Source of the DNA: Archangium violaceum
Lineage (GTDB): Bacteria; Myxococcota; Myxococcia; Myxococcales; Myxococcaceae
Assembly: GCF_016859125.1 (NCBI RefSeq)
Contig: NZ_CP069338.1
Span: 558,001-622,000 of the forward strand
Length of the DNA: 64,000 bases
Direction of reading: 5' to 3'
The stretch's first letter is position 1. Each line of letters opens with the position of its first letter. A program made the position numbers and the translations under genes. The notes beneath the pieces are model-generated. The model worked only from the letters and a program-made list of their open reading frames with translations, did no database searches and was not told the DNA's origin. Of the stretch, positions 4,169 to 60,074 are shown piece after piece.

Positions 4169-6544
4169 GTGAAGCCCTTCCTTCGCGTCCTGATCCTGCG
4201 GCTGCGCAACAGCTGGAAGTTCATGCTCCTGGTGGCCGTGCTCGCCACCGGGGGCGCCGCGCTCTGCCAGAAGTACGACCTGTTGCGGATGAGCGACGCC
4301 GAGCTCGGCGCCTACGACCAGGGCCTCACCTTCTTCACCGGAGGCCATCCGCGCTCGAGGGACGTGGTCATCGTCGGCATCGACGACAAGACGCTGCAGG
4401 GCATCCGCGACAACGAGCAGTACGTGCGCAACTACGGCGTCTATCCCTACTCGCGCAACCTGTGGGCGCGCGTCTTCGAGCACCTCGTGGACCAGGGCGC
4501 CCGCGCCATCGTCTTCGACGGCGTGATGGACGAGCGGGGCACCGATGAGAGCAATGACCTCGCCCTGGCGCAGGTGCTGGAGGAGCGCGGCATTCCCCTC
4601 ACGCTCGGCTTCAGCATCAACGCGGGCCAGCCCTCCCTGCCCCGGGTGGAGCCGGTCAACCGCCTGCCTCGGGTGCCCACACCACGCCCGGCCCCAGCAT
4701 CGGAAGTCAGCCCCGTCAGCGAGGAGGGAGAGGACTTCGTCGAGGCCGTGCCCACGGGCGTCGCCGCCGGGGACGACTTCGTGGAGACGGAGGGCTCTCC
4801 GCCCCTGACGCGGGAAGAAGTGGCGCGGGCGCTCGCCTTTCCCGTGCACCACCCCGGCCTGTCCCTGCCCTCGTTGGAACAGCGCCACCCGGTGCAGCCC
4901 CTGCCCGGCCTGGTACGCACCACACCGGGCTTCGGGCTCGTCGTGCTGGAGGAGGACGGGGACGGGCGCCTGCGCCGCACGCGCTTCGCCTACTCGGACG
5001 GCGCCAACACCTATGCCACGCTGTCACTGGCCGCCGCGGCGGACATCTTCGGCGCCGAGCGCGTCGAGCTGACACCGGGCAGGCTGAAGATCGGCTCCCG
5101 CGAGCTGCCCATCAACCCGGACGGCAGCGCGGAGCTGGACTTCGGCGGCGCGTGGAAGGACCGCTTCGAGGCGCTGAGTGTGTACGCGGTGCTGGAGGAC
5201 TGGGCCCGCCGCGAGGAGCACCGGGCGAAGGGCACGCCCTACGTGCCGGCCATCCCCGAGGGCACGTTCCGCGACAAGGTGGTGCTGGTGGGCGGGCTGT
5301 CGCTGGGCACGAGCGACGTGAAGGCCACGCCCTTCCAGAGCGACTCCCCCGGCCTCGTCAAACACGCGGTGATGCTGGAGGCGCTCCTGTCCGGCGGCTT
5401 CATCACCGAGGCGCCCTTCTGGATGTCGCTCCTGCTCACCTTCGGGGTGGCGCTCTTCTCCGTGACGCTCATCACGCTCGTGCGCGCGCCGGCGCTGGAG
5501 ATCGCCTGGCCGCTGCTGCTCTTCTTCGGCCTCTTCCTCGTCACCGGGCTGTTCCTCGAGCACGGCCGGGTGCACGTGCTGAGCGCCATGCCCATCTACG
5601 CGGGGGAGGTCGCCTCGCTGTCGGCGATCGCCTTCAACCACATGTTCGCCAACCGGGAGCGCGAGCGGCTGCGCCAGGCCTTCAACCGCTTCCTGGACAA
5701 GACGCTGGTGGATCAGCTCGTGGAGCAGCAGAAGCTCCCCTCGCTGGAAGGAGAGACGCGGGAGATCACCGCCTTCTTCTCCGACATCCGCGGCTTCTCC
5801 TCCTTCAGCGAGCGCTTCAAGGACGACCCGAAGGCGCTGGTGGCCCTGCTCAACCGCTACCTCACCCGGGTGAGCTCGGTGCTGATGGCGCACGGGGCCT
5901 GCCTGGACAAGTACATCGGCGACGCGGTGGTGTGCCTCTTCGGCGCACCGCTGGACATGCCGGACCACGCGGTGCGCGCCTGCCACGCCGCGCTCGCCGT
6001 GCGCGCCGAGGTGGATGCCCTCCGCGCCGAGCTCCAGAAGGAGGGCCTGCCGGACGTCTACACCCGCATCGGCCTCAACTCCGCGGAGATGTTCGTGGGG
6101 AACTTCGGCAGCGAGCACCTGCTCGACTACACCGCCATCGGGGATGGGATGAACCTCGCCTCCCGGCTGGAGGGCGCCAACAAGGCCTACGGCTCGGTCA
6201 TCATGATCGGCCCGCGCACCTACGAAATGGCGCGCGAGCACATCGAGGCACGGGAGCTGGACCGGGTGAAGGTGGCGGGCAAGGAGGAGGCGGTGACCGT
6301 GTACGAGCTGCTGGCGCGCGCTGGAGAGCTGCCCGCGGCGAAGCGCACCACCGTGGAGCGCTACCACCGGGCACTCGCGCTCTACCGGGAAGCGCGCTTC
6401 GAGGAGGCGGCCCTCGTGCTGGAGGAGGCGCTCGCGGCGGACGCGGAGGATGGTCCCAGCAGGGCACTCCTTGCGCGGTGCAGGCGTTACGCGTTGAATC
6501 CTCCCGCCCTCCCCTTCGACGGGGTGGCCAGCCTGGAGAAGTGA
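4169..6544 (+). CDS. CHASE2-domain class III adenylate cyclase
   Basis: Predicted membrane receptor cyclase making cAMP in response to a periplasmic signal. From the chosen GTG start, an N-terminal membrane segment is followed by a long extracytoplasmic CHASE2 region (about residues 40-390) containing a low-complexity Pro/Glu insert. Three closely spaced membrane helices come next (about 400-475), then a class III cyclase domain with FFSDIRGFSSF near residue 535, DKYIGDAVVCLFGAP near 582 and DYTAIGDGMNLASRLEG. The Lys of DKYIGD favours ATP over GTP. A short helical tail follows. An ATG 102 bases upstream is in frame but its peptide is basic and promoter-like, so GTG at VKPFLRV is preferred; neither has a strong ribosome site. 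The stop overlaps the next start (GTGA), implying translational coupling. Confidence 0.88.
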   Translation: MKPFLRVLILRLRNSWKFMLLVAVLATGGAALCQKYDLLRMSDAELGAYDQGLTFFTGGHPRSRDVVIVGIDDKTLQGIRDNEQYVRNYGVYPYSRNLWARVFEHLVDQGARAIVFDGVMDERGTDESNDLALAQVLEERGIPLTLGFSINAGQPSLPRVEPVNRLPRVPTPRPAPASEVSPVSEEGEDFVEAVPTGVAAGDDFVETEGSPPLTREEVARALAFPVHHPGLSLPSLEQRHPVQPLPGLVRTTPGFGLVVLEEDGDGRLRRTRFAYSDGANTYATLSLAAAADIFGAERVELTPGRLKIGSRELPINPDGSAELDFGGAWKDRFEALSVYAVLEDWARREEHRAKGTPYVPAIPEGTFRDKVVLVGGLSLGTSDVKATPFQSDSPGLVKHAVMLEALLSGGFITEAPFWMSLLLTFGVALFSVTLITLVRAPALEIAWPLLLFFGLFLVTGLFLEHGRVHVLSAMPIYAGEVASLSAIAFNHMFANRERERLRQAFNRFLDKTLVDQLVEQQKLPSLEGETREITAFFSDIRGFSSFSERFKDDPKALVALLNRYLTRVSSVLMAHGACLDKYIGDAVVCLFGAPLDMPDHAVRACHAALAVRAEVDALRAELQKEGLPDVYTRIGLNSAEMFVGNFGSEHLLDYTAIGDGMNLASRLEGANKAYGSVIMIGPRTYEMAREHIEARELDRVKVAGKEEAVTVYELLARAGELPAAKRTTVERYHRALALYREARFEEAALVLEEALAADAEDGPSRALLARCRRYALNPPALPFDGVASLEK

Positions 6545-7140
6545 CCGTGAAACTCGAGAGACTCCCCACGTTGCTGGCACTGGCGTGCGTGGCCACCAGT
6601 GGCACGGCCCTCGCCGTGCCGCCCGGGGGCACGCTGTACATCAAGGCGAAGAACACCCACCTGAAGGCCTCGAGCAGCCCCACCGCGAACACGCTCGTGG
6701 TGCTGCAACCCGGCAAGCAGGTGACGTACAACGGCCGCGAGGGCAGCACGCCCTGGTGCAAGGTGACGGTGTCGGCGGACAAGAAGGCCCCCGTCCAGGG
6801 ATTCATCTACCAGGCCAACCTCGCGGTCTCGCCGCCCTCGCTGGAGGTCACCAGCAAGAACCCTGGCAAGCCGCTGTCCCCCGAGGCCTTCGCCTCCTCG
6901 GGCGCGGCCGTCAAGGCGCTGGGGCCCGGGGCCATCGAGTACGGCAAGTCGCTGAGCCGGCCCGAGAGCGTCCAGCAGCTCATCGCGCTCGAGTCGCTCG
7001 CCAAATCCATCGACGAGACCCAGGTGGCCGAGTACGCCCGCGCGGGCGGGCTGCCCGAGGTGGTGGGCCGGCCCGAGGTGGCGAGCCGCTCCTCCGCGAA
7101 GCCGGGCAACCGCACGTCGTCGAAGAGGGGGCGCAAGTGA
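6541..7140 (+). CDS. Secreted SH3-like domain protein
   Basis: A 199-residue protein with a Sec signal peptide (VKLERLPTLLALACVATSGTALA) followed by a bacterial-SH3-like segment of about 70 residues (GTLYIKAKNTHLKASSS through PVQGFIYQANL). Such domains usually bind cell-wall peptides or act as protein-protein modules in the periplasm. The C terminus is an uncharacterised helical and basic tail. The GTG overlaps the cyclase stop and the next gene's ATG overlaps this stop (TGATG), so the three genes form one transcription unit. A second GTG two codons downstream is an equally possible start. Function is inferred from fold type only. Confidence 0.75.
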   Translation: MTVKLERLPTLLALACVATSGTALAVPPGGTLYIKAKNTHLKASSSPTANTLVVLQPGKQVTYNGREGSTPWCKVTVSADKKAPVQGFIYQANLAVSPPSLEVTSKNPGKPLSPEAFASSGAAVKALGPGAIEYGKSLSRPESVQQLIALESLAKSIDETQVAEYARAGGLPEVVGRPEVASRSSAKPGNRTSSKRGRK

Positions 7141-8201
7141 TGGACCGGCGTCGGATGAAATTCCTCGTGGCGTGCCTGGTACTCAGTGGCCTTCCGGGCT
7201 GCGCACGGTTCCAGCGATTCGCGAGCAACTCCGGTGGCACGCTCGGGAAGGTCGGGCGGGTCATGGAGGACAACTCGAAGTCCTTCCAACGTGCCGACGA
7301 GATGAAGAAGGACTGCGATGCGTTGAGGGCCCGCACCGTCTCCTTCGAGGAAGAGACCGCCTTCGGTGGCGCGGTGAGCGTCAACTGGGTGAGCCAGGGA
7401 GGAGGGCTCACGAACCGGTCAGATGCCCGTGCGCTGCACGTGCAGCTCAACAAGATTGGAAAGAACCTCGCGGCCCAGTCGAGCCGGCCGAACCTCCCCT
7501 GGACCTTCGGAGTGCTCCAGTCCGAGGGCGTCAACGCGGTGAGCGGACCGGGGGGTTACGTCTTCGTTTCCGAGGGGCTGCTCGCACGGCTGGACAACGA
7601 GGCCCAGCTCGCGGGGGTGCTGGCGCACGAGATCGCCCACATCACCGGCAAGCACGCGATGCACGAGTACCAGAGGTATCTCGTGAAGCAATGCGAGGGC
7701 GCGGTGACGGCCGCGCGGGTGGATGCGGCCGTGAACACGGTGAAGGGAATCGGGAGCGCGATCGCGCCGATACAGCTCCCTCCCGGCGAGCTGCGGAACC
7801 TGTTCCAGGGGCTGGCGGCCAACGTGGATTTCAACGCGTTGGGCAAGAACGCCATCAAGGCCCTCACCGACGGATTCGTCTCGCACCTCCTCGAGAAGGG
7901 CTTCGACACGGACGACGAGTACGCCGCCGACCTCGAGGCCGTGGAGTTGATGGCGGCCGCCGGCTACGCCCCCGAGGAGTACGTGGCCTTCCTGTCGAAG
8001 CTGCCGGACAAGGGGCTCTCCACCGAGCACCCCCGCAAGGAGAAGCGGCAGGAGAGGCTACGCAAGCAACTGGCGAAGTGGAGCGAGCGCGCCCCGGACG
8101 ACGAGTTCACCACGTCCGTGGACCTCTCCCAGACGAAGGTCGTTCCCCTGCGCGACGCGCTCCAGGCGGGCCGCACGGGCACCGCCTCGCGCGGGGATTG
8201 A
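7140..8201 (+). CDS. M48-family zinc metalloprotease lipoprotein
   Basis: Predicted periplasmic membrane-anchored protease of the BepA/YcaL/LoiP type, which handle misassembled outer-membrane proteins. The N terminus has a lipobox ending LPGC about 20 residues in. The zinc motif HEIAH lies near residue 163, and the third ligand glutamate is in DEYAADLEAVELM near residue 260. There is no C-terminal TPR domain as in BepA, so it is closer to the short single-domain forms. It is the last gene of the cyclase-SH3-protease unit. The stop lies 12 bases from the stop of the convergent binding-protein gene. Confidence 0.88.
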   Translation: MDRRRMKFLVACLVLSGLPGCARFQRFASNSGGTLGKVGRVMEDNSKSFQRADEMKKDCDALRARTVSFEEETAFGGAVSVNWVSQGGGLTNRSDARALHVQLNKIGKNLAAQSSRPNLPWTFGVLQSEGVNAVSGPGGYVFVSEGLLARLDNEAQLAGVLAHEIAHITGKHAMHEYQRYLVKQCEGAVTAARVDAAVNTVKGIGSAIAPIQLPPGELRNLFQGLAANVDFNALGKNAIKALTDGFVSHLLEKGFDTDDEYAADLEAVELMAAAGYAPEEYVAFLSKLPDKGLSTEHPRKEKRQERLRKQLAKWSERAPDDEFTTSVDLSQTKVVPLRDALQAGRTGTASRGD

Positions 8202-8213
8202 ACGGGGCGCTGG

Positions 8214-9407
8214 TCAGGGCGCCACGGTGGTGACGAACTCCGTCTTCCCGTCACCGACCTTGAGGATGACGGCGGGCTTCACCGGGTTGCGATTGGCATC
8301 GAGGCTGAGGGTGCCCGTCACACCGGGGAAGTCCTTCGTCGAGGCGATGGCCTCGCGCAGGGCGGCGCCCGAGGTGTCCTGCGCCCGCTTCATCGCCTCC
8401 ACGGCCACGCGGGCCGCGTCATAGCCAAGTGCCGCGATGGCGTCCGGCACGCTGCCGTAGGCGGCCTTGTAGTCGGCGATGAACTTCTGGGTCCGAGCGT
8501 CCGGGTTGTCCGGCGAGTAGTGGTTGGAGAAGTAGCTGCCCTCGACCGCGCTGCCGCCCAGCTCGAAGAGCTTGTCGGAGCCCCAGCCATCACCCCCGAG
8601 CAGGGGCACCGTGACGCCCAGCTCCCGCACCTGGCGGGCGATGATGCCCACGTCGCTGTAGTAGCCGGGAATGTAGATGGCCTGGGGCTTCGCCTTCTTG
8701 ATGGCGGTCAGCTGCGCGCGGAAGTCCGTGTCTCCCTTCGCATAGCTCTCGTCGGCGACGATCTTCCCTCCCAGCTCGGAGAACCTGCCGACGAAGGTGT
8801 CCGCGAGACCGATGGAGTAGGCGCTCTTGTTGTCCCGCAGCACGGCGATCGTGTCGAACTTCAGGTGCTCGCGCGCGAACTTCGCCATCACCGAGCCCTG
8901 GAAGGGATCGATGAAGCAGACGCGGAAGATGGAGTCGCCCTTCTGGGTCACCGCCGGGTTGGTGCCGCTGGGGGTGATCATCGGCACGCCAGCCGCCTGG
9001 GCCTTCTCCGCCACCGCCAGGGACGCGGAGGAGCCCGTGTCCCCCAGGATGAGGGCCACCTTGTCCTGGGTGATGAGTCGCGTGGCCGCCTGCGCCGCCT
9101 CCTCGGGCTTGCCCTGGCTGTCGTAGACGCGCGTCTCCAGCTTCCTGCCCTTCACGCCGCCCGCGGTGTTGGCCTCCTGGATGGCCAGCTCGATGCCATT
9201 GCGCGCGGAGATGCCATAGGTGGCCTCCCCTCCCGTGAGGCTCCCCAGGACGCCCACGACGAGCGCACCTGAAGCAGCTGGAGGTGTGGCCTGAGCACCC
9301 GCCGAGCCACCCGTGACGGGCGTGGCGGGAGCGGGCGGGGATTTCTTCTCGCAGCCCGTCATGACCAGGGCGAGCGAGGTGAGAAGCAGGGAAAGTGAGC
9401 GATGCAT
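8214..9407 (-). CDS. ABC-type branched-chain amino-acid substrate-binding lipoprotein
   Basis: Periplasmic binding protein of the LivJ/LivK type (type I periplasmic fold). The N terminus is a lipoprotein signal ending LVMTGC, then a Pro/Ala-rich linker, then the two-lobe fold with GVLGSLTGGEATYG, GDTGSSASLAVAEKAQAAGVPMI and YSDVGIIARQVRELG. About 397 residues, normal for the family. The ATG at MHRSLSLL was preferred over an in-frame codon 11 residues earlier because it begins the signal peptide directly. No permease or ATPase genes are adjacent, so this is an orphan binding protein whose ligand cannot be told from sequence; amino acids or small organic acids are usual. Confidence 0.9.
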   Translation of the reverse strand: MHRSLSLLLTSLALVMTGCEKKSPPAPATPVTGGSAGAQATPPAASGALVVGVLGSLTGGEATYGISARNGIELAIQEANTAGGVKGRKLETRVYDSQGKPEEAAQAATRLITQDKVALILGDTGSSASLAVAEKAQAAGVPMITPSGTNPAVTQKGDSIFRVCFIDPFQGSVMAKFAREHLKFDTIAVLRDNKSAYSIGLADTFVGRFSELGGKIVADESYAKGDTDFRAQLTAIKKAKPQAIYIPGYYSDVGIIARQVRELGVTVPLLGGDGWGSDKLFELGGSAVEGSYFSNHYSPDNPDARTQKFIADYKAAYGSVPDAIAALGYDAARVAVEAMKRAQDTSGAALREAIASTKDFPGVTGTLSLDANRNPVKPAVILKVGDGKTEFVTTVAP

Positions 9408-53699: not shown

Positions 53700-55073
53700 T
53701 CAGTTCTCCGCGGCTCCGGCCAGGAGGATCCAGTTCTCGATGGACTGGCGATCGGCGTCGGGCAGCGGAGAGTTCCCGTTGAGCGGGTTGATGGGCATGC
53801 GGCTGCCGGTGATGCTGCCGTCGCCGGTGAGCTTGAGGTACAGGTAGCTCTTCTCCAGGCTGCCGCGCTCGATGAGGTTGAGCGAGGGCTTCTGGCTCGA
53901 GGGCTTCATCACCAGGCGCTCGTAGACCTCATGGGAGGTGCCGAGCAGGTTCAGCCCGCCCTGCGGGTTGTCACCCCCGTGGCAGCCGCCGCAGTTCGAC
54001 TGGAGGATGGGCAGCACGCGCCCGCTCCACGTGTCACCGGAGCCCGCGAGGCTGAGGGCCGACGGGTTCGCCGAGTACGTGCACTTGTTGTAGTCGATGG
54101 ACGAGGACAGGCTCCACTGCGTGGCGTTCGAGTCGAGCCCCTCGATGAAGCACATCAGCGCCAGCATGTCCGGCACGTTCGGCGGCTGGTTGGCCAGCGG
54201 CATGCGCGTCCCGGGGACCGTCTGGTCGGCCATGTACCCACGCAGGCGCGCCACCAGGTAGCTTTCCTCGGGCTTGCCCGGCTTGATGAGCGGCACGGTG
54301 TTGCCGGGGACGCGCGCACCAAAGGTGCCGTTGCGGTTCTGGTCGCCCTGCACGATGCCGCTGGCCACCAGGCCCTCCACGGTGTCGCGCTGGTTCTCGC
54401 TCACCTGGGCGAACAGGTGCTTCCGATCATCGCCGAGCACCCACCAGGTCGTCTTGTAACTGGCGAAGGCCAGTTCCTGCACGTTGCCCTGGCCGTTGAC
54501 GAAGGTGCGGATGAAGGTACCCGTGGCGTTGAGGCGCTCCTCCTTCACGGGCACGGGATCGTGCAGGTACAGGTGCAGGCCCACGGTGCTGGCGTCCGGC
54601 CGCGCCCCGTTGTCGAACTGCGGCGTCTCGCCGGGGACGAGCTCGAACCAGCCGATTTCGATCTCCTTGAAGGTCTGCTCTGCGAAGCGGAAGCGGTCGC
54701 CCAGGCGCTCGCACCGGTCGAACACGCCCGTCGGGTTTCCGGACTGCACGTTGCACGGGGCGTTGATGGAGGCCACGAAGGTGCCCGGCGTGTGCAGGTC
54801 CGGGTACTCCTTCTGGTTATGGCACACGCCATTGCTGCCGCTGCACGTGCGCATCACCAGCTTGCGGTGCAGGTCGATCCCCGTGGGGTACGTCAGCTGC
54901 GCCGCCAGCACGTCCACGTCCGAGCCCGTGTACGGCACCACGTCCGTGGACGTGCCCGGCGTGGGGCGATTCGGCTCGAAGGGGATGGAGCCCGGGTCCT
55001 GCGTGTTGGGACCGGAGGAGCCACAGGCCAGCGTCAGGGCACCGAGGGAGGCAACGAGAAGGGAGCGCTTCAT
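53700..55073 (-). CDS. Cytochrome-c-like lipoprotein of the DUF1501 operon
   Basis: A 457-residue lipoprotein (lipobox LTLAC). It has a CxxCH heme motif in LQSNCGGCHGGDNPQGGLNLL near residue 365 and a further Cys/His cluster, RTCSGSNGVCHNQ, near residue 80 that is not a standard heme motif. SYLYLKLTGDGSITGSRMPIN and a repeat-like SYLVARLRGYMADQTVPGTRMPL are typical of planctomycete-type cytochrome c domains. Its ATG overlaps the stop of the DUF1501 gene (ATGA), so it is translated from the same mRNA. Possible redox partner or structural protein; function unknown. Confidence 0.82.
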   Translation of the reverse strand: MKRSLLVASLGALTLACGSSGPNTQDPGSIPFEPNRPTPGTSTDVVPYTGSDVDVLAAQLTYPTGIDLHRKLVMRTCSGSNGVCHNQKEYPDLHTPGTFVASINAPCNVQSGNPTGVFDRCERLGDRFRFAEQTFKEIEIGWFELVPGETPQFDNGARPDASTVGLHLYLHDPVPVKEERLNATGTFIRTFVNGQGNVQELAFASYKTTWWVLGDDRKHLFAQVSENQRDTVEGLVASGIVQGDQNRNGTFGARVPGNTVPLIKPGKPEESYLVARLRGYMADQTVPGTRMPLANQPPNVPDMLALMCFIEGLDSNATQWSLSSSIDYNKCTYSANPSALSLAGSGDTWSGRVLPILQSNCGGCHGGDNPQGGLNLLGTSHEVYERLVMKPSSQKPSLNLIERGSLEKSYLYLKLTGDGSITGSRMPINPLNGNSPLPDADRQSIENWILLAGAAEN

Positions 55074-56479
55074 GCGAAGAAGTCCTGGATGGGAGCGTCC
55101 GCGGGGAAGATGCCCTGGTGGTCGGCACCGAGCAGGTCCAACATCGTCTTGAGCACCGAGCGGTAGGAGTACACCTGACCGGTGGCCTTGAGGTTCGAGC
55201 GGTTCACCGAGCCCAGGCTCTTGCCGCCCTTGCCAGCGGCGGAGATGACGCCGCCCATGAAGGGCATGGACATCCACCGGGTGGCCAGGTCGGGGCCGTG
55301 GTCGCTACCGTTGGCGGAGTTGAAGCGGCTGCCACCCGTGGTGCGGCCGAACTCGCTGCCGAGCACCACCAGCGTCTTGTCCCAGTACGAGCCGCCCTCG
55401 GGGTGCTGCATCCGCTGGAGGGCCGTGCGCAGGCCACTCACCAGCCGGTTGGCGGCCTCCATCTCGCCCGGGAGCTCGGCGTCCTCGCGCGAGTGGAAGT
55501 CGTAGCCCCCCTGGTTGAGGAACACCGCCGGGCAGCCGAAATGGAAGAGGCGCAGCGCGAGCGCCGCCCGCTGGCCCGTGGTGTCCGTGCCCAGCAGCGT
55601 CCGCAGCTCCTTGTTGGAGATGCCGTCCACCACGTCATTGCTATCGGTGCTCACCCGGAGCATCGGGTCGCGGAAGATCTTCCCGTAGTCGCTCGTGGCC
55701 TTGCGCGTCTGCTGGTACGTCTCCACACTCCCTTGCAGCGCCGTGTGGAGCCTGTCCCGGAAGCGGGCGTCCATCTTCGTGGCGATGGTGCGAGCCCACT
55801 CCGGCAGGCTCGAGTCCGGGTCCACGCTGAAGCCCTGGAAGTTGCTGCCCTCCAGCACCGGCGGCCGGTAGGTGGCGTATTCGGGCGAGCCCGTGGCCAT
55901 GCCCGCCTCGCCCAGGCTGAAGGCCGGCAGCAGGGTGACGCCCCGCGAGGCCGCCTCCTTCACACGCTCGCGCACCCCGTAGTTGACGTACGTCAGGAAG
56001 CCGGTGGCCCCGCCCACGTAGCCCGTGAGGAAGCGCTCCAGGCCCGTGCCGTGGCCACCATCCGCGCGCGCCGAGAAGGGCTCGTGGTCCACGCACGGCA
56101 GCACGCAGATTTCATTGGTGAAGTCCGTCACCGGCTTCATGCCCAGGTCGCGGCGCGGCTTGCCTTCCTCCCCGTCCAGCCACCCCGCGCGCTCCAGCAG
56201 CTTGCCCACACCCCACTCGGTGCCGGACGCGGGGTTCGCCTTGCCAAAGGGGTTGAACTCGTCGGCCACGTCGCCGTTGAAGGCGGTGGTGAAGCGGAAG
56301 CCGCCGGACAGGCGGATGTAGATGAGGTGGCGCACGGTGCCGTGCCCGGCCGTCTGGGCACGGGCCTCACGCGGCAGCCACAGGTGGGGAAAGGCCAGCG
56401 CGGCGGTACCAGCGCCCAGCCCCTGCAGCAGCCGGCGGCGGCCGAAGGTGACGGACTTCGTGTCATCGGAGTCGGACAT
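55070..56479 (-). CDS. Tat-exported DUF1501 protein
   Basis: A 469-residue protein with a twin-arginine signal (GRRRLLQGLGAGTAALAFP). The DUF1501 core, a sulfatase/alkaline-phosphatase-like fold, shows VRHLIYIRLSGGFRFTTAFNGD, LRLFHFGCPAVFLNQGGYDFHSREDAEL and LVVLGSEFGRTTGGSRFNSANGSDHGP. The Tat signal implies folding in the cytoplasm, often with a cofactor or metal. DUF1501 proteins are abundant beside DUF1549/DUF1800 genes in planctomycetes, where the role is not known. Middle gene of the operon, with a 4-base overlap to the next. Confidence 0.9.
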   Translation of the reverse strand: MSDSDDTKSVTFGRRRLLQGLGAGTAALAFPHLWLPREARAQTAGHGTVRHLIYIRLSGGFRFTTAFNGDVADEFNPFGKANPASGTEWGVGKLLERAGWLDGEEGKPRRDLGMKPVTDFTNEICVLPCVDHEPFSARADGGHGTGLERFLTGYVGGATGFLTYVNYGVRERVKEAASRGVTLLPAFSLGEAGMATGSPEYATYRPPVLEGSNFQGFSVDPDSSLPEWARTIATKMDARFRDRLHTALQGSVETYQQTRKATSDYGKIFRDPMLRVSTDSNDVVDGISNKELRTLLGTDTTGQRAALALRLFHFGCPAVFLNQGGYDFHSREDAELPGEMEAANRLVSGLRTALQRMQHPEGGSYWDKTLVVLGSEFGRTTGGSRFNSANGSDHGPDLATRWMSMPFMGGVISAAGKGGKSLGSVNRSNLKATGQVYSYRSVLKTMLDLLGADHQGIFPADAPIQDFFA

Positions 56480-56497
56480 GGGAGAGGGCTCCGTGGG

Positions 56498-58297
56498 CTA
56501 GTAGAAGACGCGCTCCGCGCTCGACAGCAGCGCGAAGCAGAAGGGCCGGGCGAAATCCTCCGCCGAGCACAGGGTGAGGGCACACGCCGTACCGGCCTCG
56601 CGGGCCTCGGCCCGCTCCGTGTCATCCGGCGAACGGCCGAGCAACAGCCGGTACTGGTGGGTGGCGATCTCCTCGGCCACGTCCGCGTTCACCGCGCGGC
56701 TCGGGCCCACGCTCGCGGGAAGCAGCTTCTCCACCGCCGCCGCGCCCTTCACCGCCGGGTCCAGCGTGGGGTTGCACAGCGTCTGCACGAAGGAGAGCTG
56801 GGTGGCGGTGGTGAGGATGCTCACCACGCGGAAGCGTCCGCCCACCACGTTCTCCGGGCAGCCTCCCAGGGTGCGAGCCACCTCCGAGTAGCGCTCGTCC
56901 ACCTCGCCCTTCTCGTCCATCTTCCAGCGCGACTCCTGCAGCACCCGGTAGGCGGCGACACTGCCCGAGTTCAGCAGCGCCTCCGGCTGGCTGATGCGGT
57001 GGTCGCACCCGGACAGCTCGAGGCCCGTGTTGCGGGCCATGGAGTCGATCCACACCTCCGCGTCCACCTGCTTGAGCGGGCCGTACGTCCACCGGTAGGC
57101 GTTGGACGAGGCCCCCTCGGCGGACTGGAGGTAGGCCGCGGAGGTGGCCACCGCGTAGTGCACCGAGCGGATGTCCCCGTTGTTCCGCAGCACCCAGCGC
57201 ACCAGTTCCTCGCGCACCTCGGGAACCTTCGCGGACAGCTCATACCCCAGGTACTGCATGAGCACGTCGTCCACCGCGCGCTCCCAGAAGTCCAGCTGGC
57301 CCGCGACGATGCGACCCGGCGTCTGGAGCTGCGCCCACTCCTCACCGGAGAGCAGACCGCTCCACAACGTCAGCTCCCTCAGGTTCGGGTCGCGCGCGGC
57401 GCGCAGGTCCGGCGTGAAGATGACCTCGTTGTAGCCCCACAGCACGCTGGCGCACTCGCCTCGGGACACCTCGTCCACGGCCCCGGTGTCATCCAGGCAG
57501 CGGAAGCGGATGAAGGCGTCCGGCAGGCGCATCCCCAGCTGCGGATGGTCGTAGTAGCCCGAGTGCCACAGCTTGTAGAGGCGCGCCATGTCCGCGCGCT
57601 CATGCTCGAAGGGCGGGCGGCCCAGGAACTGGGTGAAGAGCGCCTCGGCCTTGTCGCCCGGATCCGCGTAGCGGCGGGTGAACACCGGATGGGCGCTCAC
57701 CACCGCCGCGAACAGGTCATACGGCACCAGCCCGCGGTACAGCTTCGCCACCAGCCGATCCATGTCGTAGATGGCCTGGAGGCTCGTCACCTCGTTGCTG
57801 TAGAGGAAGCGGTCCGCGGCGCGGCGCTGCTGGACGAGGATGAACTCGTCGCTGTCCATCAGCCGCTTCACCGTGGCGCCCCACCCGCCCGAGCACGTGG
57901 ACTCGGCCTCGTCGGCCGTGGGCACGCGCCCGAGCATGTCCACGAAGAGCCGGCGGCAGGCCTCGGCCTGGACGATGGGACGGCTGGACAGCCCCACGCC
58001 CCACAGGCTGCGGCACAGCCCGCGGTTGACGGGGTTCTGCAGACCTGCCTCGTTGCAGTACTTCACGCAGTCCGCGTCACAGTCCGGCGGGCGCGTGTCG
58101 TTGGGCAGCGTCGAGACCGGGCGCGCCGCGGGCAGCACGTCATCCCCGCCCGAGAAGTTGCCCGACGTGATGGGATCCCCATTGCCCACCATGCCCCCGG
58201 GACCGGCGGCCACCTGCTCCGGCTCGAAGGTGTACGTGGGCTGGCACGCGGCCAACACCGCGAGCACGGGGAGGAAGAGCGTCCGAGACACGGCCAT
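56498..58297 (-). CDS. DUF1549/DUF1800-like lipoprotein
   Basis: A 599-residue lipoprotein (lipobox VLAAC) with GGGAG before the ATG. It is mostly alpha-helical, with CRRLFVDMLGRVPTADEAES, the second FTQFLGRPPFEHERADMARLYKLW and a third YRLLLGRSPDDTERAEA: three copies of the LGRxP-type segment seen in DUF1549/DUF1800 proteins. It lies 18 bases before the DUF1501 gene. Pairing of such a protein with DUF1501 is the standard arrangement for this family. Activity unknown. Confidence 0.78.
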   Translation of the reverse strand: MAVSRTLFLPVLAVLAACQPTYTFEPEQVAAGPGGMVGNGDPITSGNFSGGDDVLPAARPVSTLPNDTRPPDCDADCVKYCNEAGLQNPVNRGLCRSLWGVGLSSRPIVQAEACRRLFVDMLGRVPTADEAESTCSGGWGATVKRLMDSDEFILVQQRRAADRFLYSNEVTSLQAIYDMDRLVAKLYRGLVPYDLFAAVVSAHPVFTRRYADPGDKAEALFTQFLGRPPFEHERADMARLYKLWHSGYYDHPQLGMRLPDAFIRFRCLDDTGAVDEVSRGECASVLWGYNEVIFTPDLRAARDPNLRELTLWSGLLSGEEWAQLQTPGRIVAGQLDFWERAVDDVLMQYLGYELSAKVPEVREELVRWVLRNNGDIRSVHYAVATSAAYLQSAEGASSNAYRWTYGPLKQVDAEVWIDSMARNTGLELSGCDHRISQPEALLNSGSVAAYRVLQESRWKMDEKGEVDERYSEVARTLGGCPENVVGGRFRVVSILTTATQLSFVQTLCNPTLDPAVKGAAAVEKLLPASVGPSRAVNADVAEEIATHQYRLLLGRSPDDTERAEAREAGTACALTLCSAEDFARPFCFALLSSAERVFY

Positions 58298-58326
58298 GCG
58301 CGACTCCCTGCGGAAGGTGGAGGGAC

Positions 58327-59325
58327 TCAGAGCGAGAACTCGGCCCCGAGGGAGAGACCCAGGCGGAGGGCCATGGTGCTCCAGTTCTTGTTGAAATCGA
58401 GCCCGGAGATCTCCTGGCTCGTGGCGAAGAGGTACTGCTGCTCCACCTGCGCGAGCACGTCCGCGCGCAGCCAGATGCGCTCGGACATCCGCCGCCGCCC
58501 TCCCACGGAGGGACCCAGCAGCCAGCCCACGCGCGGCACGCTCCACACGCTCACGCCCTGCTCCTGGAGCCGGTGGATCTCCGCCGAGAACTCACGGCCG
58601 GGCACCAGGAAGGACAGCCCCGCGCGCCCCCCGAAGACGACCTCCGTCTTGTCGGCCACCGGCAGGCCGTACTCCCCGGAGGCGAATACCTCGTTCAGAA
58701 TGCCGAAGCCGAACTGCCGTCCTCCGCCCGCGGCGTAGTTGCCGAAGATGCGCAGGCCACCGCCCACCCGCAGCCGCTCGCTCACCGAGGGCACCGGCGT
58801 GGTCAGCCAGGCCGTGGCCGACAGGAAGCCCGCGCTCGAGTATTCGAAGGACTCGTCCCGGAGCGAGGTGTTGATGCCCTGCGAGCCATTCATCCGCGCG
58901 CTCTCCAGGAAGAGGTCCGGCCCCACGCCGATGCGCATCGGGCCGGAAGCGGCCGAGGCCGCTGGCGAGGAAGCACGTGCCGCGGAAGTGGAACGAGGCG
59001 CCGGAGCGGGCCGGAGCGCCGGGGCGGCCTTCGCCTCCAGGGCCGGCTTGGACGCCACGATGGGAGCGGGCTCCTCGGCGGCCTTCGCCTCCGTGGCGGG
59101 CCCGGGCAAGGGCGCGAGAGGAGATTCCTCCGGCTGCGCGGCCGAGGACTTCTTGGACGCGCTCGTCTTCGCCTTGGACGACCTCGATGCCTTCGATGTC
59201 TTGGATGACCTGGACGGAGCGGCCTGGCTCACCGGAGCGGCGAACACCAGCAGCGCGGAGAGGATGCCGCAGCAGACTCGAGGGAACGACTGGAACAGGT
59301 GGCGCGAGCGGAGGGGAAGCGGCAC
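58327..59325 (-). CDS. Outer-membrane beta-barrel-like protein with Ala/Lys/Ser-rich linker
   Basis: A 332-residue exported protein. A signal peptide ends near SQAAP. About 90 residues of Ser/Lys/Ala/Pro-rich low-complexity sequence follow, able to cross peptidoglycan. The C-terminal 200 residues alternate polar and hydrophobic residues and end in LSLGAEFSL, consistent with a small outer-membrane barrel. First gene of the four-gene operon and 29 bases before the next. It may be the outer-membrane component of this group. Confidence 0.75.
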   Translation of the reverse strand: MPLPLRSRHLFQSFPRVCCGILSALLVFAAPVSQAAPSRSSKTSKASRSSKAKTSASKKSSAAQPEESPLAPLPGPATEAKAAEEPAPIVASKPALEAKAAPALRPAPAPRSTSAARASSPAASAASGPMRIGVGPDLFLESARMNGSQGINTSLRDESFEYSSAGFLSATAWLTTPVPSVSERLRVGGGLRIFGNYAAGGGRQFGFGILNEVFASGEYGLPVADKTEVVFGGRAGLSFLVPGREFSAEIHRLQEQGVSVWSVPRVGWLLGPSVGGRRRMSERIWLRADVLAQVEQQYLFATSQEISGLDFNKNWSTMALRLGLSLGAEFSL

Positions 59326-59370: not shown

Positions 59371-59410
59371 AAATGACCCTCCTTCCGGTCTCGCGGACAC
59401 GGAAGGAGGG
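59371..59410 (-). terminator. Intrinsic terminator after the MXAN_6652-family gene
   Basis: CCCTCCTTCCG and CGGAAGGAGGG form a perfect 11-bp stem (extended by GTC/GAC inside) 16 bases past the stop. TCATTTT follows on the minus strand. It separates this gene from the four-gene operon downstream. Confidence 0.75.
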
Positions 59411-59426
59411 AAGAACCACGCAAGAC

Positions 59427-60074
59427 TCAGTCGCGACGACGGCGGAGCAGCGTCATGCCACCGGCGATCAGGGAGAGCAGCATCACCGGCGAACCCCCGG
59501 TGGTGGAGCAACCACCGTTGTCATCGTCACCACCACCGTCACCACCACCACCATTGCCATCGCCATCGCCCGAGGAGCCACCCGTGATGTTCACGGTCAG
59601 CGACGTGGTCGCGGCCCCGTCCAGGGTGGAGTTGCCGTCACCGTTGACCGAGTTGCCAGCGCCGAAGATCGTGACCTTGCCCCCGGTCTGGGGCGCCACC
59701 AGCAGGAAGTCGAAGATGATCTCTCCGCTGGTAGGGGACCGCGGCGCGGAGTGGGTGAGCTCGTCCCCCACCTTTTTCGTGCCCGTGCTTTCCCGCAGCG
59801 ACGCCGCCGCGTTGTCGACGGCCACGTTGAACCCACCCTTCTGCCCGGGACCACCACGGATGATGAGCTTGTACACCTGCGTCGCACCCGCTGCGATCGA
59901 CGTGGGACCCTCGATCTCCACCGTGGGCGCGGAACCACCCGTGTGGCAGAAGGAGCAGGTCTGCGTTGAGGTCTTGCCCGAGTAGCCGGTCATGCCGGTG
60001 GAATTGGCAAGGGCCGGGGAGGACAGCAGGCACAGCGAGAGCACTCCAGCAGCACCGTACGACGAGAACTTCAT
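59427..60074 (-). CDS. MXAN_6652-family surface-anchored protein
   Basis: A 215-residue exported protein with a signal peptide (SLCLLSSPALA) and a near-perfect ribosome site (GGAGGT). A CSFCHTGG motif lies just after the signal, followed by a beta-rich choice-of-anchor-V-type domain (VEIEGPTSIAAGATQVYKLIIRGG), a Gly/Asp linker and a C-terminal CSTTGGSPVMLLSLIAGGMTLLRRRRD. That tail is a MYXO-CTERM-like anchor. The CxxCH could bind heme, but one copy in a small beta protein may instead be structural. Confidence 0.88.
   Translation of the reverse strand: MKFSSYGAAGVLSLCLLSSPALANSTGMTGYSGKTSTQTCSFCHTGGSAPTVEIEGPTSIAAGATQVYKLIIRGGPGQKGGFNVAVDNAAASLRESTGTKKVGDELTHSAPRSPTSGEIIFDFLLVAPQTGGKVTIFGAGNSVNGDGNSTLDGAATTSLTVNITGGSSGDGDGNGGGGDGGGDDDNGGCSTTGGSPVMLLSLIAGGMTLLRRRRD

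What the first reader, a model, noticed from the sequence alone, without database searches (positions are those of the whole stretch)
53700..59325. Four-gene exported operon resembling planctomycete DUF1501 modules
An outer-membrane barrel-like protein, a DUF1549/DUF1800-like lipoprotein, a Tat-exported DUF1501 protein and a cytochrome-c-like lipoprotein are closely packed (29, 18 and -4 base spacing). DUF1501/DUF1549 pairs are best known from planctomycetes and have no assigned function. Adding a barrel and a heme-motif lipoprotein suggests a complete cell-envelope machine.
Basis: partly seen in the sequence, partly recalled or inferred. Interest (0 to 1): 0.6.

Follow-up and report, generated by a model that had tools for sequence, protein, structure and literature searches.

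The report
Conserved myxobacterial cell-surface heme module
Four neighbouring genes for exported proteins in a myxobacterium form one conserved unit, a rearranged version of a widespread but unexplained planctomycete gene module, and their likely parts (a membrane anchor, a scaffold, a phosphatase-like enzyme fold and a two-heme protein) make that module's function testable.

Summary
On the minus strand lie a barrel-type outer-membrane protein (OMP), a lipoprotein (LP2), a probably Tat-exported DUF1501 protein and a second lipoprotein (LP4), spaced 29, 18 and -4 bases. Among 145 genomes of the order, LP2 and the OMP barrel occur in the same 22. Module-type DUF1501 and full-length LP4 occur in 21 of them; the 22nd contig ends inside LP2. 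All 19 complete relatives fetched keep the gene order, and so do relatives about 50% identical.

LP2 is a distant, heme-less relative of DUF1549-DUF1553 (PSCyt2-PSD1), without a DUF1800 hit. LP4 has two PSCyt1-like domains, with CX6CH in the first and CXXCH in the second. DUF1501 has an alkaline-phosphatase-superfamily fold in a medium-confidence model; five Asp/His positions are universal, and a His stands where the nucleophile would be.

Best reading: an outer-membrane-anchored, redox-linked alkaline-phosphatase-fold enzyme complex. Anatomy and conservation are shown; substrate, heme and assembly are inferred. It is a new variant of the known, unassigned DUF1501 module.

The parts
58327..59325 (-). 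OMP: exported protein, A/S/P/K-rich linker, C-terminal barrel-like domain of about 200 aa (332 aa)
   Evidence: alignment; amphipathic-strand test and linker composition; co-occurrence
58330..58953 (-). barrel-like domain of OMP (residues 125-332)
   Evidence: used alone as query: 22 of 145 genomes, the same set as LP2
56498..58297 (-). LP2: lipoprotein, distant relative of PSCyt2 (DUF1549)-PSD1 (DUF1553) without a heme motif, 14 Cys after the lipobox (599 aa)
   Evidence: confident AlphaFold2 model
55070..56479 (-). DUF1501: twin-arginine N-terminus, alkaline-phosphatase-superfamily fold (469 aa)
56051..56053 (-). His143 of DUF1501, at the place of the superfamily's nucleophile (inferred from motif spacing)
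   Evidence: H in 30 of 30 DUF1501 sequences
55493..55501 (-). D327-x-H329 motif of DUF1501, candidate metal ligands
   Evidence: 30 of 30
55298..55303 (-). D393-H394 motif of DUF1501, candidate metal ligands
   Evidence: 30 of 30
53700..55073 (-). LP4: lipoprotein with two tandem PSCyt1-like cytochrome domains (457 aa)
54819..54845 (-). CX6CH motif of LP4 (C77, C84, H85)
   Evidence: 19 of 19 and 10 of 10 aligned sequences, two overlapping sets; kept in G185/L139
53979..53993 (-). CXXCH motif of LP4 (C361, C364, H365)
   Evidence: 19 of 19 and 9 of 10
59377..59410 (-). strong hairpin upstream of OMP, possible terminator or boundary of the unit
   Evidence: -26.1 kcal/mol, z -4.25, 0 of 200 shuffles as good; no clear T run, and the terminator scan did not list it

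Best explanation
The four genes encode an outer-membrane-associated, redox-linked enzyme complex. It is a split, barrel-equipped variant of the planctomycete DUF1501/PSCyt/PSD module. SHOWN here: the gene unit, its co-occurrence, the domain make-up, the alkaline-phosphatase-superfamily fold of DUF1501 (from a medium-confidence model) and the two homologous cytochrome-like domains of LP4. INFERRED: DUF1501 folds and takes up metal in the cytoplasm (hence Tat export) and acts on an ester-bearing envelope or extracellular substrate. LP2, a helical cysteine-rich lipoprotein, is the scaffold. LP4 binds two hemes c (CX6CH with Met291, CXXCH with Met426) and passes electrons to or from the reaction. 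The small barrel anchors the assembly at the outer membrane rather than conducting. The weakest steps are the substrate and the direction of electron flow.
For: The same 22 of 145 genomes carry LP2 and the OMP barrel. 21 of these carry module-type DUF1501 and full-length LP4 (a search of 195 genomes of the phylum in which no other genome had a full-length match); the 22nd is cut by a contig end. Order kept in 19 of 19 complete loci, with the -4 overlap in 17 of 19. Distance matrices of the four proteins correlate at r 0.93-0.98 over 21-24 loci (expected for any co-inherited genes). Fold of DUF1501: 443 of 929 chains at Z of 8 or more, best Z 16.1 over 236 residues at 3.3 A; the 50 rows listed are enzymes of the alkaline-phosphatase superfamily (superfamily assignment from established knowledge). 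H143, D327, H329, D393, H394 in 30 of 30 DUF1501 sequences. LP4's Met-bearing segments are homologous (E 2.9e-11; 0 of 500 shuffles in each of 10 sequences) and align RMPLAN with RMPINP. LP4's C-terminal domain matches the hydrazine synthase alpha chain in the PDB (E 2.1e-4). PSCyt1 in 10 of 10 relatives. G185 keeps LP2, DUF1501 and an LP4 reduced to the CX6CH domain.
Against: No activity, heme or metal is shown. The DUF1501 model is only medium confidence (mean pLDDT 66.5, pTM 0.72), and the loops holding H143, H329, D393 and H394 (132-144, 328-332, 378-400) are under 50. Foldseek had no hit at E up to 0.001 for it; its best (LtaS) is E 3.4e-3, prob 0.96, TM-score about 0.3 at 10.7 A over the whole length. 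The usual Ser/Thr/Cys nucleophile is replaced by His in 30 of 30, so ordinary phosphatase or sulfatase chemistry may be lost. CX6CH could be a disulfide or another metal site. The adjacent genes scanned give no substrate clue. In three distant loci the barrel-type gene is divergent, and in G185 no OMP was recognised. The strand test also fired on 6 of 19 LP4 controls.
Confidence: 0.4

Rival explanations
1. Envelope decoration or export: DUF1501 is a transferase of the LtaS/EptA type that puts phospho-groups on a glycan or lipid at the cell surface; LP2 and the barrel help deliver the product, and LP4 is a redox or disulfide helper.
For: Foldseek's best hit is a lipoteichoic acid synthase, and phosphoethanolamine transferases are also listed. 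DUF1501/DUF1800 pairs sit beside bacterial chitin synthases (PMC5122149, passages).
Against: No glycosyltransferase or polymerase was seen among the adjacent genes inspected (window; six related loci by eye). The superfamily nucleophile is not kept. LP4's heme motifs would be unexplained.
Confidence: 0.2
2. LP4's N-terminal domain binds no heme: CX6CH is a disulfide or metal site, and the module is a structural or metal-handling surface complex.
For: Four further Cys (107, 121, 308, 331) are invariant in 10 of 10. LP2 has 14 Cys after the lipobox, nearly all invariant. No paper in the searched library uses the notation CX6CH.
Against: The N-terminal domain is homologous to the CXXCH domain in its Met-bearing segment, and His85 directly after Cys84 is invariant.
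Confidence: 0.15
3. Electron donor for oxidative attack on polysaccharides, like the cytochrome domain of Cellvibrio Cbp2D that reduces LPMOs.
For: Cbp2D carries a DUF1587 domain and c-type cytochrome domains; its X183 domain activates LPMOs (PMC8981238, section 5 and passages). PSCyt proteins of Verrucomicrobia carry carbohydrate-binding modules (PMC5615132 section 13).
Against: No carbohydrate-binding or LPMO domain is among the Pfam hits of the four proteins. Cbp2D belongs to a related but different branch (DUF1587).
Confidence: 0.12
4. Porin-cytochrome conduit that carries electrons across the outer membrane.
For: A barrel-type gene in one unit with a two-motif heme lipoprotein.
Against: Only two heme-type motifs and a barrel-like domain of about 200 aa, too small by established knowledge of MtrAB-type conduits to hold a cytochrome.
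Confidence: 0.06
5. Chance neighbours without common function.
For: Only the divergent barrel orientation in L059-L061 and the 6.6 kb gap in L063.
Against: Co-occurrence and order kept across genera and at about 50% identity.
Confidence: 0.02

Closest known systems
DUF1501 genomic module of the PVC superphylum (Kamneva et al. 2012; not held; seen only through passages in PMC4452313 and PMC4960237)
   Same: DUF1501 in a conserved cluster of exported proteins; next to PSCyt2/PSD1-type and PSCyt1-type domains (the domain make-up of the planctomycete module is partly recalled)
   Different: PSCyt1 is a separate, tandem two-motif lipoprotein; the PSCyt2-PSD1-type protein lacks a heme motif; a barrel-like protein leads the unit
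DUF1800-DUF1501 pairs (beside bacterial chitin synthases, PMC5122149, passages; also in myxobacteria, L107, L108, L111, L114, L120, L123; the DUF1800 label of these six partners is read from their sequence, no Pfam scan was run on them)
   Same: Tat-type DUF1501 with an exported partner encoded next to it
   Different: partner family differs; those six partners showed no heme motif
Alkaline-phosphatase superfamily (NPPs, sulfatases, LtaS, phosphoethanolamine transferases)
   Same: fold; paired Asp/His motifs
   Different: His in place of the Ser/Thr/Cys nucleophile, and GG at the end of the first strand where the superfamily has Asp (recalled), 30 of 30
Cbp2D of Cellvibrio japonicus (DUF1587, X183 cytochrome domain; PMC8981238)
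   Same: exported protein joining a PSCyt/PSD-type domain of unknown function with c-type cytochrome domains
   Different: different domain branch, with carbohydrate-binding and YceI-like domains, and no DUF1501 partner described in the section and passages read

Membership tests
DUF1501 (PF07394) | score above the curated cut-off | tested here: met
   76.3 bits against 27
PSCyt2 (DUF1549) and PSD1 (DUF1553) | score above the curated cut-off in the window protein | tested here: not met
   16.7 against 29.8 and 20.6 against 28.5; 15 and 14 of 16 relatives match at E up to 0.1, best 5.7e-8 and 4.1e-7; so called a distant relative, not a member
PSCyt2 (DUF1549) | CXXCH, as seen in the two canonical partner proteins L077 and L112 | tested here: not met
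   0 of 16 LP2 relatives; canonical partners carry CAQCH
PSCyt1 (PF07635) | score above the curated cut-off in the window protein | tested here: not met
   19.8 to 20.3 bits against 22 in the window; but 10 of 10 relatives match at E up to 0.1, best E 1.9e-8; so called PSCyt1-like
DUF1800 (PF08811) | profile match of LP2 | tested here: not met
   no match among 16 relatives at E up to 0.1
Planctomycete DUF1501 module | DUF1501 adjacent to a PSCyt2-PSD1-type gene | tested here: met
   window and 19 of 19 complete relatives, with LP2 called PSCyt2-PSD1-type
Planctomycete DUF1501 module | PSCyt1 fused to PSCyt2-PSD1 | tested here: not met
   PSCyt1-like domains lie in separate LP4; the fusion as the usual state is partly recalled, PMC5615132 notes varied combinations
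Alkaline-phosphatase superfamily | fold | tested here: met
   Z up to 16.1, 443 of 929 chains at 8 or more; model confidence medium; Foldseek weaker, best E 3.4e-3
Alkaline-phosphatase superfamily | Ser/Thr/Cys nucleophile nine residues before the T-G of its helix (spacing recalled) | tested here: not met
   His in 30 of 30
Alkaline-phosphatase superfamily | bound metal ions | not testable with these tools
   conserved D327, H329, E/D376, D393, H394 only suggest it
c-type cytochrome | CXXCH plus a Met-containing segment downstream | tested here: met
   CXXCH 19 of 19 and 9 of 10; M426 invariant
c-type cytochrome | covalently bound heme, in particular at CX6CH | not testable with these tools
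   C77, C84, H85 and M291 invariant in 19 of 19 and 10 of 10
Outer-membrane beta-barrel proteins | barrel fold | tested here: inconclusive
   Pfam OMP_b-brl in 1 of 11, E 0.011; amphipathic pattern in 23 of 29 rows, but also in 6 of 19 LP4 controls; no structure predicted
Phycobilisome linker domain | fold, compared with LP2 | tested here: inconclusive
   Z 6.3, 118 residues, 3.4 A; Foldseek E 5.8 and worse

The most novel reading that the evidence does not exclude
The module is an unrecognised kind of redox-coupled enzyme: an alkaline-phosphatase fold rebuilt around an invariant His in place of the nucleophile, served by a cytochrome whose first heme is attached through a new CX6CH motif. The CX6CH domain, the one that survives alone in G185, would be the working electron port. 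If so, the many unassigned DUF1501/PSCyt proteins share one redox chemistry.
Probability: 0.22. Interest if true: 0.8.

Novelty: new variant of a known kind. Interest (0 to 1): 0.5.

Why it matters
DUF1501 and the PSCyt/PSD domains are abundant (41 copies each of DUF1549 and DUF1553 in Rhodopirellula baltica, PMC2754498, passage), yet the passages read here assign DUF1501 no function. The myxobacterial version splits the module into separate proteins, with LP2 and its DUF1501 found once per genome, in bacteria that include cultured strains such as Archangium violaceum Cb vi76, so each part can be purified or deleted on its own. It also offers a specific candidate for a non-standard heme-attachment motif.

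Tried and rejected
DUF1800 kinship of LP2: no Pfam hit; only a 33-column local match to DUF1800-type partners, E 0.004, probability 8%. In the same call LP2 matched the partner proteins of L005 (E 1.2e-4, probability 56%) and L112 (E 1e-3, probability 22%) over its N-terminal part only, and L006's hardly at all. PDB sequence searches with DUF1501, LP2 and OMP profiles gave nothing useful. LP2 fold: no Foldseek hit at E up to 0.001; the phycobilisome-linker resemblance (Z 6.3) is too weak for a helical protein. The MYXO-CTERM gene upstream with CxxCH was considered as a fifth member: it was found in 10 of 20 loci only and is separated by a strong hairpin in the window, so it was left out. The sigma-70 promoter scan found nothing and terminator matches were at chance level (2 found, 2.5 expected). 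Rfam: no match at gathering scores in the window. Chance adjacency and a porin-cytochrome conduit were rated low for the reasons given in the rivals. Rows left out before counts: one search used 16 of the 22 loci plus L077 (L115 and L122 gave no core gene, L113, L119 and L124 a frame that looked wrong, L116 a shortened one). One search used 24 loci that hold LP2, DUF1501 and LP4, without L048-L052 (repeats of genomes already counted), L040 (start site uncertain) and L054 (LP4 cut); the window itself was not among the 24, and OMP distances used 21. Genome searches score a limited number of first-look candidates per genome (e.g. 9), so absence means no close relative found.


Full report
Observation. 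On the minus strand, OMP (59325-58327, GTG, 332 aa), LP2 (58297-56498, 599 aa), DUF1501 (56479-55070, 469 aa) and LP4 (55073-53700, 457 aa) are spaced by 29, 18 and -4 bases. LP2 and LP4 have lipobox cysteines at 18 and 17, invariant in 19 of 19 relatives. DUF1501 starts with a twin-arginine motif, though the Tat profiles match it below their cut-offs. The window lies in a 12.68 Mb single-contig genome. Its genus is probably Archangium: two genomes marked 'same genus' (G046, G044) hold contigs of the same length as the named records of A. violaceum Cb vi76 and A. lansinium.

Conservation. Among 145 genomes of the order, LP2 is found in 22, in 8 of 46 genera. The OMP barrel domain alone is found in the same 22 and was not found in the other 123. 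DUF1501 of this type (E up to 1e-60) is in 21 of 145. Full-length LP4 is in 21 of the 195 genomes of the phylum search; the other 37 genomes with a match show parts, mostly the C-terminal domain. Both sets of 21 lie within the 22; the missing genome (G121) has a contig that ends inside LP2. I fetched wide regions from 20 of the 21 other LP2 genomes: all 19 complete loci keep OMP-LP2-DUF1501-LP4, and the DUF1501/LP4 overlap of four bases is kept in 17 of 19. The 21st, G092, is split over contigs: DUF1501 and LP4 pieces adjoin on one, and on another the OMP lies 6.6 kb from the LP2 fragment (L063). The named-genome scan gave 16 loci, of which L048-L053 and L063 repeat genomes already counted. 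In the nine new ones (L054-L062; 45-54% identity for LP2), DUF1501 and LP4 follow LP2 in the 7 whose contigs reach that far (LP4 of L054 is cut). The OMP precedes on the same strand in 5 of 9. It is divergent in L059 (E 5e-9). In L060 (Enhygromyxa salina) and L061 a divergent protein with signal peptide, linker and barrel-like tail is recognised by architecture only. L062 begins at LP2. The phylum search with LP2 (195 genomes) found one further genome, G157, with a short match (not followed). A more distant three-gene version (LP2, DUF1501, LP4), without a recognised OMP, is in G185.

What the parts are. LP2: PSCyt2 (DUF1549) in 15 of 16 relatives and PSD1 (DUF1553) in 14 of 16 at E up to 0.1, best E 5.7e-8 and 4.1e-7, but below Pfam's cut-offs in the window protein. 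It has no CXXCH in any of 16 relatives and 14 cysteines after the lipobox in the window. Its model is confident (pLDDT 87.5, pTM 0.88) and mostly helical, with no clear known fold. LP4: PSCyt1 in 10 of 10 relatives at E up to 0.1, just below the cut-off in the window. C77-x6-C84-H85, M291, C361-x2-C364-H365 and M426 are kept in 10 of 10 of a diverse set, except that L061 lacks one spacer residue in the second motif. In the closer set of 19 (four sequences or genomes shared with the ten) both motifs are in 19 of 19. The two Met-bearing segments are homologous (E 2.9e-11; 0 of 500 shuffles for each of 10 sequences), so the N-terminal half looks like a cytochrome domain with a long insert. In G185 only this CX6CH domain remains. 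DUF1501: the model is of medium confidence (66.5), Foldseek's best hit is E 3.4e-3, and the structural re-alignment places it in the alkaline-phosphatase superfamily (Z up to 16.1). In 30 DUF1501 sequences (13 of this module, 17 from other loci) H143, D327, H329, D393 and H394 are universal, position 376 is E in 27 and D in 3, and GG stands at the end of the first strand. By the spacing to the T-G of the following helix (sulfatase and NPP motif spacing recalled), H143 sits where the catalytic Ser/Thr/Cys would be. A tree separates the module's DUF1501 from the other copies on a long branch (support 1.000). OMP: an amphipathic pattern supports a small barrel; not proven.

The same theme elsewhere. 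DUF1501 is in 106 of 145 genomes of the order. The window's genome holds three loci: besides the window, L005 (PSCyt2/PSD2/PSD4-type protein, small lipoprotein, DUF1501, CXXCH lipoprotein) and L006 (PSCyt2/PSD2-type protein, CXXCH lipoprotein, DUF1501). Of 22 DUF1501 loci examined, six had a DUF1800-like partner (my reading of the sequences) and four were of the L005 type or parts of it (L005, L117, L118, L126); two gave no core gene and three a frame that looked wrong. Two canonical PSCyt2-type pairs are L077 and L112 (read from sequence). The window's unit is thus one of several subtypes, distinguished by its barrel, heme-less LP2 and two-motif LP4.

Mechanism. Most likely an outer-membrane-associated redox-linked enzyme complex: DUF1501 is the catalytic metalloprotein, LP2 the scaffold, LP4 the electron carrier and the barrel the anchor. 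The fold, domain make-up and co-occurrence are shown; substrate, heme, metal and assembly are inferred. Published leads: PSCyt proteins with carbohydrate-binding modules and near sulfatases (PMC5615132, section 13); a cytochrome domain of a DUF1587 protein that reduces LPMOs (PMC8981238, section 5 and passages); DUF1501/DUF1800 beside chitin synthases (PMC5122149, passages). Full-text searches for DUF1501 (10 papers: passages seen of six, the other four as listing only), DUF1800 (4 papers: passages of two, two as listing) and DUF1549/1553/1552/1588/1592/1587 (5 papers, passages of all) showed me no functional assignment of DUF1501, and no paper uses CX6CH, CX5CH, CX7CH or the spelled-out form. 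The library holds only openly licensed papers. Atypical heme attachment is known from SirA of Shewanella (PMC6976685, listing with start of abstract only).

Verdict. Observation confirmed, interpretation partly supported, new variant of a known but functionally unassigned kind. Interest is moderate: not a new category, but a clean, dissectable version of a long-standing puzzle, with two specific testable oddities (CX6CH, and His at the nucleophile place).

Noticed in passing
window 59427-60074 (-): MYXO-CTERM choice-of-anchor V protein (MXAN_6652 family) with a CxxCH motif, 101 bases upstream of OMP; found in 10 of 20 related loci, CxxCH in 9 of 10.
   Followed up: partly
L005 and L006 (same genome, near 5.354 and 10.016 Mb): Two further DUF1501 modules of different make-up, with heme-motif lipoproteins.
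   Followed up: partly
G043 and the seven genomes of genus g7: A second copy of the OMP barrel lies elsewhere in these 8 of 22 genomes; in g7 the stray copy sits in a long open frame (375-405 aa) while the operon copy's is short (238-266 aa).
   Followed up: no
L139 (G185), 4398-8753: Distant three-gene version whose LP4 lacks the whole CXXCH domain but keeps CX6CH.
   Followed up: partly
L063: OMP and LP2 6.6 kb apart on one contig, with other open frames between.
   Followed up: no
LP4 residues 243-249: Conserved GDQNRNG stretch resembling a calcium-binding loop (resemblance recalled, not tested).
   Followed up: no
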